A stretch of 37,144 nt of DNA, taken from the NCBI GenBank assembly GCA_017468055.1, contig JAFUJU010000038.1, positions 1 to 37,144 of the forward strand. The letters are read 5' to 3'. The translations under genes and the position numbers were made by a program. A model generated the notes under the pieces. That model worked only from the letters and a program-made list of their open reading frames with translations, ran no database searches and was not told the origin of the DNA. This DNA is from Elusimicrobiaceae bacterium. Lineage in GTDB: Bacteria > Elusimicrobiota > Elusimicrobia > Elusimicrobiales > Elusimicrobiaceae. Shown here one piece after another: positions 31,990 through 34,940 of the stretch; within the stretch, counting starts at the first letter, position 1; every line of letters begins with the position of its first letter.

Positions 31990-32010
31990 GACCTATAAAA
32001 AATATAGGTC
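31990..32010 (+). promoter_or_regulatory. inverted repeat (operator-like) upstream of first exported-protein gene
   Basis: GACCTATA, five bases, TATAGGTC: a perfect 8-bp inverted repeat. Its centre is 66 bp upstream of the likely -10 box TATAAA (32066-32071) of the gene at 32125. A half-site TAGGTC follows at 32029-32034. The same arrangement precedes the next gene. Confidence 0.7.
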
Positions 32011-32124
32011 CTATTTCCTACTTCAAAATAGGTCTATTTTTTTCTTTTATCTCCGACGATATTTTTATAAAATTAAAAAGTACCCAAAAACAAAACAACT
32101 AAAAAAGGATGGAGAAGTAATACA

Positions 32125-32685
32125 ATGAACATGAAAAAAATTATCTTAAACACGCTCTGCGTATTAGCCGTTACGGTCGCCGCGCAGCATGCGTATGCTC
32201 AAAGCCCTAGCATGGAAGCTAAATTCTTAGGGGACGCTTGGAGCAGAACCTTCACCACCGGTGATAATAAGAAAAAAAGCCAACCGGCCCCTGCCGACGC
32301 TGGCAAACCGGCAGAACAACCGGCTACCGAGCAAGCAGAACAACCGGCCTCTAACTCAGCTTATTTAAATGCCGGACCCAAAATGAAAATCGTCAACGGT
32401 GCAGAATACAATGCCCACTTCGTCGGAGAGGTATACAATTGTATCGGCGATGCCTGCAAAACAGCTTGGGATGCTGTTAAGAATTTCTTTGTAGAAGGTG
32501 CTAAAAACATTCCACAAGGATACGTACCCGGACGTGAAGGTGCTATCATGCGCAGCGGAGAGAATTTTTGGAAGAATATAAAAGACAAAGAGACTACCGC
32601 CAAGTCAGACTCTTTGGCAGCCGCTTTAGATCGCGCCAATGTAAAAGCCGCCGCCTCACAATACGAAGCTTCCCAACAAAAATAA
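32125..32685 (+). CDS. exported protein of unknown function
   Basis: The 186-residue protein has a clear Sec signal peptide (MNMKKIILNTLCVLAV, cleavage likely after AYA at about residue 25). The mature part begins with MEAKFLGDAWSRTF, then a low-complexity Pro/Ala/Glu/Gln linker (residues about 52-75) and a C-terminal domain with two cysteines (YNCIGDACKTAWDAVKNF), probably forming a disulfide in the periplasm. I do not recognise the family. AAGGATGGAG precedes the ATG; a second ATG is two codons on. A terminator follows. The upstream inverted repeat is shared with the next gene, suggesting co-regulation of two secreted proteins. Confidence 0.8.
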   Translation: MNMKKIILNTLCVLAVTVAAQHAYAQSPSMEAKFLGDAWSRTFTTGDNKKKSQPAPADAGKPAEQPATEQAEQPASNSAYLNAGPKMKIVNGAEYNAHFVGEVYNCIGDACKTAWDAVKNFFVEGAKNIPQGYVPGREGAIMRSGENFWKNIKDKETTAKSDSLAAALDRANVKAAASQYEASQQK

Positions 32686-32691
32686 ATCTTC

Positions 32692-32717
32692 AAGCCCCGC
32701 TTGTGCGGGGCTTTTTC
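32692..32717 (+). terminator. terminator after first exported-protein gene
   Basis: AAGCCCCGC pairs with GCGGGGCTT around TTGT, followed by TTT. Confidence 0.92.
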
Positions 32718-32730
32718 AAAAGTCTATAAA

Positions 32731-32751
32731 GACCTATATAGGATATAGGCC
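32731..32751 (+). promoter_or_regulatory. inverted repeat (operator-like) upstream of second exported-protein gene
   Basis: GACCTATA, five bases, TATAGGCC: 15 of 16 arm positions are the same as in the repeat at 31990-32010. Its centre is again 66 bp upstream of the -10 box. A half-site TAGGTC follows at 32769-32774. Confidence 0.7.
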
Positions 32752-32784
32752 TAAATTATTTTTATTTTTAGGTCCAAAGACCCT

Positions 32785-32812
32785 TTGAAAGACTCTCTAA
32801 AGTTTTTATAGT
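32785..32812 (+). promoter_or_regulatory. promoter of second exported-protein gene
   Basis: TTGAAA (32785-32790), 16 bases, TATAGT (32807-32812). The gene starts at 32849 with GGAG upstream. Confidence 0.75.
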
Positions 32813-32848: not shown

Positions 32849-33490
32849 ATGACAATCAAAAGAATACTTCTTTTAACAGCTTTCATTTCCGTAGCTGTCA
32901 TTGCCCAAGCGGAAGAAAAACCTCAACTTTCAGCCTCTTTTCAAAAAGCCTTAGAAGGTGGTAATGCACGCGCTGCCCAAGTCCACCGTCAAGAAAATCT
33001 GGTTTCTTGCCCCGAATGCGGACGCAAAGTAGAAGCGGGCTCCACCTGCAGCAACCACCACAAAAAAATTACCGTAACGGGAGATGTGGAAATGGTTTCT
33101 TGTTCTGAGTGTGGACGTAAGGTAATTGCCGGAACGGTGTGCCACCACGGACACAAACCCACGTTGGTCGAAGCTCCTTCTGCCCATCATCACACCGCCA
33201 ACTGTCAAAGCTCTTGCACATGCAGTGAATGTACTGAAGAAAGAACCAACACCTCTGCCGACAAACCCGCAGCTCAAGAAAATGCAGACGATAGCGTTGT
33301 TCATACCTGTTCTTTTTGCGGAGAACCGATTTTAGAGGAAAACCACTCTTGCTCCAGCCAGCACAATCCGTTTGGTATTTGTACCTATAAAGATATGAAC
33401 ACGGGCAGACCTCTTTATCAAGGCGACTATTCCAACCGCTTTAAAGACAGATTCTATGTTCCTTACGAATCTCAAATAGTCAAAAAATAA
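32849..33490 (+). CDS. exported protein with repeated zinc-ribbon-like motifs
   Basis: The 213-residue protein has a Sec signal peptide (MTIKRILLLTAFISV, cleavage after AQA at residue 21). The mature part carries three similar knuckles: CPECGRKVEAGSTC (Cys54/57/67), CSECGRKVIAGTVC (Cys85/88/98) with following His, and CSFCGEPILEENHSC (Cys154/157/168). Between the second and third is a dense SSCTCSECTEE segment. Such CxxCG pairs normally form cytosolic zinc ribbons; in an exported protein they could hold metal or form disulfides. I know no family that fits. GGAG precedes the ATG. It shares regulatory sequence with the gene before it and ends in a terminator. Confidence 0.8.
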   Translation: MTIKRILLLTAFISVAVIAQAEEKPQLSASFQKALEGGNARAAQVHRQENLVSCPECGRKVEAGSTCSNHHKKITVTGDVEMVSCSECGRKVIAGTVCHHGHKPTLVEAPSAHHHTANCQSSCTCSECTEERTNTSADKPAAQENADDSVVHTCSFCGEPILEENHSCSSQHNPFGICTYKDMNTGRPLYQGDYSNRFKDRFYVPYESQIVKK

Positions 33491-34039: not shown

Positions 34040-34057
34040 TTTTATTTGGTAGAATAA

Positions 34058-34170
34058 GACCGCATAGATTCGGAAAAATTATGCGGTCGGGACCTAGGGA
34101 AAACAACGTATCACCAAGCTATGATACCAGAGCGGAGCCCCGCTCTTTTCCCTCAAACACTGTAAGTGTT
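34058..34170 (+). ncRNA. structured RNA candidate (hairpin plus three-way junction), unknown class
   Basis: A 9-bp hairpin (GACCGCATA with TATGCGGTC) is followed by a junction: GGGAAAA pairs with TTTTCCC and encloses GTATCA/TGATAC and GAGCGG/CCGCTC stems. Then AAACACT-gta-AGTGTTT runs into T. GGAC and GTCC segments outside the junction can pair too. It lies between the putative promoter and the repressor gene at 34299, so it may be a leader or a separate small RNA. I recognise no known family. The following 34171-34285 is AT-rich with no gene. Confidence 0.45.
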
Positions 34171-34298
34171 TTTAGTCCGAAGAAAGACGAAAGACTTAAG
34201 CTATTTGTAGTATATATTGTTAGCATAGTAAGTTTTTATCATATTTGTCAAGTTTTTCTTTTTTCTTCTTTTTTCCGTTATATGTATAGGAGAAATAT

Positions 34299-34940
34299 AT
34301 GAATAAATTTGAAAAGCAATTAGAAAAATGGAATAATGGAGTACTAAGAGGTGCGCAAGCAAAGTTAGCAAAAACATTGGGCGTTTCCACTGCCACCACC
34401 GCCTTATGGGCTACCGGCAAACGCCGCCCTTCCAAAGGTTATGCCTCCCAAATAGCCGCTTTGTTTAAAATGGACATATATAACGTTTTCAAACTTTTTG
34501 AAAAACACAGTACTGTTTACCCTACCCCTACACCGACAGCCCAACATTTTTTATGCGAAAGAGAAAACACTTCCTCTTTTCACGGAGAAGAAACACTGGA
34601 AGAATATGCTTTACCCCAAAGTAATAGTGTTCGCTTGCCGTTTTTTAATCAAGTTCCGGCCCATTTTCCGCAATACAACGAAGATGAAGTACTGGAATGG
34701 TGGGGCGTACCGCGCAGATATGCCTGCGGAGCTAAATACATAGTTCCCTCTCTTTCCATTGGTCTGCCCACTACAGACAGTGACGACTTATGCTTTATAA
34801 AGCCCGCCACGGAAAAAGCAGATAAAAACCTAATTTTATACAAATTAGAAGACGGCTCTTATACGTGCAAAAAGCCCACTCCCGTTTCAAAAGCAAAGGT
34901 GGCAGGCATCGTGGTCCGACGGATTGCTACCCCCAAATAA
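34299..34940 (+). CDS. LexA/CI-like transcriptional repressor (HTH plus S24 domain)
   Basis: The 213-residue protein has an N-terminal helix-turn-helix of Cro/CI type (about residues 20-60, AKLAKTLGVSTATTALWATG) and a C-terminal domain with the outline of peptidase S24. The hinge VRLPFFNQVPAHFP matches the self-cleavage region, but the Ala-Gly bond is Ala-His. SLSIGLPTTDSDDL stands where GDSMxPxxxDGD is expected, keeping a Ser, and GSYTCKKP holds the Lys position. It may therefore be a LexA-like or phage-type repressor with altered or lost autocleavage. AGGAG precedes the ATG at 34299. No phage genes are near. The inverted repeats upstream are candidate operators. Confidence 0.75.
   Translation: MNKFEKQLEKWNNGVLRGAQAKLAKTLGVSTATTALWATGKRRPSKGYASQIAALFKMDIYNVFKLFEKHSTVYPTPTPTAQHFLCERENTSSFHGEETLEEYALPQSNSVRLPFFNQVPAHFPQYNEDEVLEWWGVPRRYACGAKYIVPSLSIGLPTTDSDDLCFIKPATEKADKNLILYKLEDGSYTCKKPTPVSKAKVAGIVVRRIATPK

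What the first reader, a model, noticed from the sequence alone, without database searches (positions are those of the whole stretch)
31990..32812. Two exported-protein genes share an inverted repeat at an identical distance from the -10 box
GACCTATA-N5-TATAGGYC occurs at 31990-32010 and 32731-32751. In both cases the centre is 66 bp upstream of the -10 hexamer, and a TAGGTC half-site lies about 36-37 bp before the -10. Equal helical phase is expected of an activator site. The genes encode a secreted protein with a Pro/Ala linker and a secreted zinc-ribbon-like protein, so this may be a small undescribed regulon.
Basis: seen in the sequence. Interest (0 to 1): 0.7.

Follow-up and report, generated by a model that had tools for sequence, protein, structure and literature searches.

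The report
Genus-wide promoter box for exported proteins
The two repeats are real and belong to a large, apparently undescribed set of similarly built promoters in gut Elusimicrobiota, in which a shared protein (not yet identified for certain) probably switches on dozens of genes for exported proteins.

Summary
The inverted repeats at 31990-32010 and 32731-32751 are exactly as described and are not chance. They are the promoter-distal part of a conserved promoter layout. Further half-sites sit about 22-25 and 45 bp upstream of it. P2 (32849) has a perfect B at 32769-32783. P1 (32125) keeps only its TAGGTC half at 32029-32034. Both elements at P1 are footprinted in six relatives. B + 23 bp + -10 gives 624 matches in 66 genomes of the genus against 3 for the reversed pattern. 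It is also enriched in the rest of the family (118:7) and in the sister family (97:6). About 53 of 71 targets encode signal-peptide proteins; the rest include small proteins and a candidate small RNA. The centre of B near -42.5 plus tandem upstream sites is class-II-activator geometry. The genome has no OmpR- or LysR-type regulator and no convincing CRP, but has two NarL/LuxR response regulators. One (RR2) keeps all three base-contacting residues of DosR, whose box resembles B. Regulon: about 0.95. Activation: about 0.8. RR2 as regulator: about 0.5. No binding or expression data exist.

The parts
31990..32010 (+). Distal inverted repeat of P1: GACCTATA-N5-TATAGGTC (half-sites GACCTA and TAGGTC, N9)
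   Evidence: footprinted in L055, L056, L057, L045, L046, L047, with N8 or N9 between half-sites
32029..32034 (+). Proximal half-site TAGGTC of P1 (degenerate box B; its second half is lost)
   Evidence: mean column identity 0.93 in 7 sequences against 0.51-0.67 in the flanking stretches
32066..32071 (+). -10 of P1, TATAAA (within TTATAAAAT)
   Evidence: mean column identity 0.98 in 7 sequences
32125..32685 (+). P1, 186-aa exported protein with Pro/Ala linker, no known family
   Evidence: relatives in 8 of 65 other genomes of the genus
32731..32751 (+). Distal inverted repeat of P2: GACCTATA-N5-TATAGGCC
   Evidence: P2 orthologue L052 has GGACCTATTTTAGGCATGGGTCC at the same place
32769..32783 (+). 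Box B of P2, TAGGTCCAAAGACCC, a perfect match to TRGGTCYNAAGACYC
   Evidence: top-scoring site of the window by PWM, 37.5 against 16.7 for the next
32807..32812 (+). -10 of P2, TATAGT, 23 bp after box B
32849..33490 (+). P2, 213-aa exported Cys/His-rich protein (zinc-ribbon-like CxxC pairs)
   Evidence: Zn_Ribbon_1 19 bits, below the 25-bit cut-off; relatives in 3 other genomes of the genus

Best explanation
The repeats are operator sites of one transcription activator that controls a large exported-protein regulon in Elusimicrobiaceae. A dimer binds the proximal box B (TRGGTC-N4-GACYC; 7-2-7 if written as heptamers), centred near -42.5 next to a poor -35. Further dimers bind half-sites about 22-25 bp and 45 bp upstream. 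Together they recruit sigma-70 RNA polymerase at a TATAAT-like -10 lying 23 bp from the box. In the window, P2 has a strong proximal box plus upstream repeat; P1 has a perfect upstream repeat plus a proximal half-site. Shown: motif, spacing, conservation and target class. Inferred: activation rather than repression. Inferred more weakly: that the protein is RR2 (L195:2793-3479 -), a NarL/LuxR-family response regulator conserved in all members of the order examined.
For: Motif and enrichment: own-genome sites; GACCTA-N9-TAGGTC 38 to 3 over the reversed control in the 25 genomes of the genus that were searched, one strand counted; box B about 72 to 0 in the same genomes; box B + N23 + -10 624:3 in 66 genomes of the genus, 118:7 in the rest of the family, 97:6 in the sister family. 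Architecture: the best -10 is 23 bp from B in 32 of 72 sites; upstream half-sites at -23/-22 or -15/-14, then -46/-45 and -38 to -36. Phylogenetic footprints at P1 and P2. Targets: 47 of 71 signal-peptide by script against 19 of 57 on the opposite side, P = 3e-4; 53 of 71 after reading the remaining 24 by eye. Regulator: two full NarL-type regulators, conserved through the genus; no PF00486 and no PF00126, PF13545 only below cut-off. RR2 is kept at 65-74% identity in every sister-family genome in which it was found, with the recognition helix VKT[IV]KNHLNS. DosR Lys179, Lys182 and Asn183, the three base-contacting residues (PMC4082495), align with identical residues in RR2 and with none in RR1. 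The closest solved DNA-binding domain to that of RR2 is GerE, 1FSE.
Against: No binding, footprint or expression data. No perfect box was found by pattern at the RR2 or RR1 operons, so no autoregulation clue. RR2 is conserved equally in sister-family genomes where the box is rare, so its phyletic pattern does not single it out. Families not tested in the genome: AraC, XRE, TetR, MarR, GntR, LytTR and others. P1 lacks the second half of the proximal box.
Confidence: 0.7

Rival explanations
1. Same regulon and same mechanism, but the activator is RR1 (L194:2407-3054 -), the other NarL-type response regulator, paired with a soluble Cys-rich HisKA_3 kinase.
For: Present in the genomes of the genus examined with its own kinase gene; strongest where the box is strongest, since full RR1 orthologues are largely confined to the family and sister-family relatives are only 37-46% identical.
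Against: None of the three DosR base-contacting residues is kept (N, H, V instead of K, K, N). Sister-family genomes with box-B promoters (G027, G028, G039) carry RR2 but only distant RR1-like proteins with a different recognition helix.
Confidence: 0.17
2. The regulator is the HTH/S24-like protein encoded in the window itself (34299-34940), working like lambda CI: cooperative dimers on tandem operators about 23 bp apart, activating from a site near -42.
For: It lies 0.8 kb from P2 and is conserved at this locus in L055, L053, L051, L056 and L218. The operator spacing and -42 position resemble lambda OR/PRM (from general knowledge). PHROGs finds a phage-repressor-like layout, E = 4e-6.
Against: Its own promoter region has a different conserved repeat, AACTTTACTAAC ... 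GTTAGCATAGTAAGTTTT, which is the likelier site for this protein. It was not found within 3 kb of clpP in L057, which keeps the P1 repeat (limited range).
Confidence: 0.1
3. The boxes are repressor operators: the proximal box overlaps the -35 region, so a bound protein could block polymerase.
For: Box B covers about -50 to -36, and some promoters have TTG straight after it.
Against: Fixed 23-bp spacing to the -10, poor -35 hexamers, and regularly phased upstream sites without the box lying between -35 and +1 are typical of activation.
Confidence: 0.12
4. Chance palindromes, or terminator or repeat-element remnants, with no regulatory role.
For: Short, AT-rich sequences with flexible spacing occur by chance in such genomes.
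Against: Control ratios of 38:3, about 72:0 and 624:3; exact spacing to the -10; footprint conservation while flanks diverge.
Confidence: 0.02

Closest known systems
DosR/DevR regulon of Mycobacterium tuberculosis (NarL-family response regulator; box TTSGGGACTWWAGTCCCSAA, from general knowledge)
   Same: Near-identical box layout (GGGxC-N4-GxCCC against GGGTC-YNAA-GACYC), tandem boxes upstream of the -35, many targets; the candidate RR2 keeps Lys179, Lys182 and Asn183.
   Different: Fourth base of the half-site is T instead of A; targets are exported proteins, not dormancy genes; no evidence of oxygen or NO sensing; different phylum; no binding data.
GerE of Bacillus subtilis (LuxR-type DNA-binding domain; half-site TRGGY, from general knowledge)
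   Same: The half-site TRGGTC contains TRGGY; the DNA-binding domain of RR2 is most similar to GerE among solved structures.
   Different: GerE has no receiver domain and acts on sporulation promoters; the Elusimicrobia sites are N4 palindromes in ordered arrays.
VraR/LiaR cell-envelope stress regulons of Firmicutes
   Same: RR1 and RR2 are both closest to VraR over their full length; a NarL-type regulator acting on envelope genes.
   Different: No LiaF-like partner was looked for; box and targets differ; no stress response shown.
Lambda CI at OR/PRM (functional likeness only)
   Same: Tandem dimer sites about 23-24 bp apart, activation from about -42.
   Different: Unrelated protein family for the favoured candidate; sequence of the sites differs.

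Membership tests
Regulon with a shared class-II-type activator site | Common box at a fixed distance from the -10, in many promoters | tested here: met
   -10 at exactly 23 bp in 32 of 72 sites, next highest 7; 624:3 over control
Regulon with a shared class-II-type activator site | Box conserved upstream of orthologues while the surroundings diverge | tested here: met
   P1 in six relatives, P2 in one
Regulon with a shared class-II-type activator site | Loss of transcription when the box or the regulator is removed | not testable with these tools
   needs reporter assays or mutants
Regulon with a shared class-II-type activator site | Coherent target class | tested here: met
   47 of 71 against 19 of 57 by script, 53 of 71 by reading
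NarL/LuxR-family (DosR-like) response-regulator regulon | A NarL-type response regulator present in the genomes that carry the box | tested here: met
   41 of 41 genomes have PF00196 proteins over the cut-off; own genome has two full ones
NarL/LuxR-family (DosR-like) response-regulator regulon | Base-contacting residues compatible with a GGGxC half-site | tested here: met
   Lys179, Lys182 and Asn183 of DosR kept in RR2, none in RR1 (residues from PMC4082495)
NarL/LuxR-family (DosR-like) response-regulator regulon | Direct binding of the regulator to the box | not testable with these tools
   needs EMSA or footprinting
LysR-type regulation (IR with T-N11-A near -65 plus activation half-site) | A LysR-type regulator in the genome | tested here: not met
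   PF00126 has no match in the genome, 86.6% complete
OmpR-type response-regulator regulation | A Trans_reg_C regulator in the genome | tested here: not met
   PF00486 has no match
CRP/FNR-type regulation | A CRP-type HTH regulator in the genome | tested here: inconclusive
   One PF13545 match, 22 bits, below the 27-bit cut-off
CI-like regulation by the window's own HTH/S24-like protein | The same box in the regulator's own promoter region | tested here: not met
   A different conserved repeat is found there

The most novel reading that the evidence does not exclude
One activator, conserved across an order of mostly uncultured bacteria, is dedicated to the exported proteome: it drives dozens of secreted or envelope proteins, many from leaderless mRNAs, plus a small RNA, making it an 'exportome' master regulator of a kind not described in Elusimicrobiota.
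Probability: 0.35. Interest if true: 0.75.

Novelty: new member of a known kind. Interest (0 to 1): 0.6.

Why it matters
Nothing on gene regulation by such a box in Elusimicrobiota turned up in the searched open-access papers, although these bacteria are common in animal guts and nearly all uncultured. A well-defined promoter syntax makes it possible to read off the coordinately expressed exported proteins, most without any known family, predict transcription starts to the base, and test a single regulator. It also gives a handle on leaderless exported genes and a candidate envelope-linked small RNA.

Tried and rejected
LysR-type reading of the repeat (T-N11-A at about -65 with a second site near -35): attractive on geometry, rejected because no PF00126 protein is present. 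OmpR-type regulator: no PF00486. Sigma-54: not compatible with the TATAAT-like -10; also reported absent from E. minutum (PMC3162934). Control of clpP by the P1 repeat: the repeat-to-clpP -10 distance is not kept in L056 and L057, so not favoured. Autoregulation of RR1 or RR2: no strong box. The crude signal-peptide script gives both false negatives and false positives (window background 10 of 32 at its loosest; a similar background, 19 of 57, on the opposite strand), so the exported fraction is approximate. Searches for GerE TRGGY and for DosR box papers in the open library found none, so those consensus sequences rest on general knowledge.

Full report
What was checked. They exceed chance within the window: 5 matches at up to 3 mismatches against 0.20 expected, and none of 100 shuffles reaches 5. 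The window is contig C28 of a 1.32-Mb, 86.6%-complete genome. ClpP next door is 99-100% identical to that of Elusimicrobiaceae MAGs from sheep and water-buffalo colon, so this is a ruminant-gut-type Elusimicrobiaceae.

From repeat to regulon. In the own genome, GACCTA-N9-TAGGTC occurs without mismatch at four places and with one mismatch at several more, mostly upstream of genes whose products begin with a signal peptide. In the 25 genomes of the genus in that search the pattern has 38 matches (one strand) against 3 for the reversed control. Reading these promoters showed a second, stronger element closer to the gene, TRGGTCYNAAGACYC ('box B'). It occurs about 72 times without mismatch in the same genomes, with zero matches for the reversed pattern. 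P2 has a perfect box B at 32769-32783; P1 has only its first half, TAGGTC at 32029-32034.

Architecture. I aligned 72 distinct box-B sites of the genus. The best -10 hexamer lies exactly 23 bp after the box in 32 of them; the next most frequent offset has 7. Upstream half-sites prefer TRGGYC at -23/-22 or GRCCY at -15/-14 from the start of the box, and again -46/-45 and -38 to -36. So the N5 repeat is a pair of half-sites within a phased array, not the primary element. With the -10 at -12 to -7, box B covers about -50 to -36 and is centred near -42.5, the standard position of class II activators (general knowledge). The -35 hexamers are poor. Activation is therefore inferred, not shown. I cannot decide which pairing of half-sites (N4 or N9) is the unit bound by one dimer at the upstream positions.

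Conservation. P1 orthologues divergent from clpP in six relatives keep the repeat (N8 or N9), the TAGGTC half-site (except L057) and the -10. Mean column identities are 0.71 and 0.89 in the repeat arms, 1.0 in its spacer, 0.93 in TAGGTC and 0.98 in the -10, against 0.51-0.67 in the stretches between and around (raw sequences). The P2 orthologue in L052 keeps both elements. The composite of box B, 23 bp and TATAAT (3 mismatches) gives, adding both strands, 624 matches in 66 genomes of the genus against 3 controls, 118 against 7 in 24 other genomes of the family, and 97 against 6 in 59 genomes of the sister family. The syntax is thus oldest at order level and expanded in the gut family.

Targets. 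Of 71 box-B promoters with a readable gene, 47 have a signal-peptide-like start by a simple script, against 19 of 57 when the same script reads the opposite direction (P = 3e-4). Reading the remaining 24 by eye adds six exported proteins (53 of 71). The others are eight copies of a 50-54-aa protein (LRFLLALGGxKVVV), three copies of an about 87-aa protein, four promoters that drive a short hairpin transcript, a 57-aa protein, and two unclear cases. None of the four own-genome exported targets tested has a Pfam match. One promoter region with several half-sites lies between the pyruvate phosphate dikinase gene and the 57-aa protein gene.

Regulator. The genome has no OmpR-type and no LysR-type regulator, and one PF13545 match below its cut-off. 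It has two full NarL/LuxR-type response regulators, both found across the genus. RR1 sits with a HisKA_3 kinase. RR2 sits with two kinases next to exported-protein and Tad-like genes (the Tad reading is from sequence impression only). RR2 is found at 65-74% identity in nearly all sister-family genomes inspected, with its recognition helix unchanged (VKT[IV]KNHLNS), whereas RR1-like proteins there are 34-46% identical with altered helices. In DosR, Lys179, Lys182 and Asn183 make the base contacts (PMC4082495). The DosR alignment puts identical residues at all three positions of RR2 and none in RR1. The nearest solved DNA-binding domain to that of RR2 is GerE. From general knowledge, DosR binds GGGACTWWAGTCCC and GerE half-sites contain TRGGY; box B resembles both. 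This favours RR2 at about even odds. The window's own HTH/S24-like protein (34299-34940) is a rival on lambda-CI-like geometry, but its promoter region has its own, different conserved repeat.

Prior knowledge. Searches of the open-access library found no description of such a box or regulon in Elusimicrobia. Subscription papers, including the E. minutum genome paper, were not available, so novelty is 'not found' rather than proven.

Verdict. As a kind of system it is an ordinary bacterial activator regulon, new for this phylum; its size, uniform syntax and exported-protein focus make it interesting.

Noticed in passing
window 34056-34180 (+): Unannotated structured RNA (z-score -4.2) upstream of the HTH/S24-like gene, conserved in at least four relatives; 13 of 35 predicted pairs show compensatory changes among 5 sequences; no Rfam match.
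   Followed up: partly
window 34299-34940 (+): HTH protein with a phage-repressor-like layout and an S24-like C-terminal part that seems to lack the catalytic serine motif (by eye); its promoter region has a separate conserved repeat AACTTTACTAACTCAAGTTAGT ... GTTAGCATAGTAAGTTTT.
   Followed up: partly
L219:-, L223:-, L253:-, L024:+ and own genome L149 (start of contig G000:C2): Candidate small RNA, about 60-75 nt, driven by box-B promoters: conserved TTTCATCC then hairpin ACCGCTGTAG-TCCCAAACCCTG-CTACAGCGGT with a T-rich tail, upstream of a glycosyltransferase gene; z-scores about -5.5 to -6.2; no Rfam match.
   Followed up: partly
L202, L203, L212, L236, L243, L244, L252 and others; own genome L140, L142: About 19 of 72 box-B promoters have an open ATG exactly 50-52 nt from the start of the box, 6-8 nt after the -10, so these exported-protein mRNAs should be leaderless.
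   Followed up: partly
L204, L209, L222, L255, L257, L264, L266, L025: Conserved 50-54-aa protein (LRFLLALGGxKVVV...) of unknown function under box-B promoters in at least seven genomes.
   Followed up: no
L196:3075-3182 (G000:C89:16074-16181): Cluster of six half-sites between divergent pyruvate phosphate dikinase and a 57-aa ORF that is conserved in another genome (L221).
   Followed up: no
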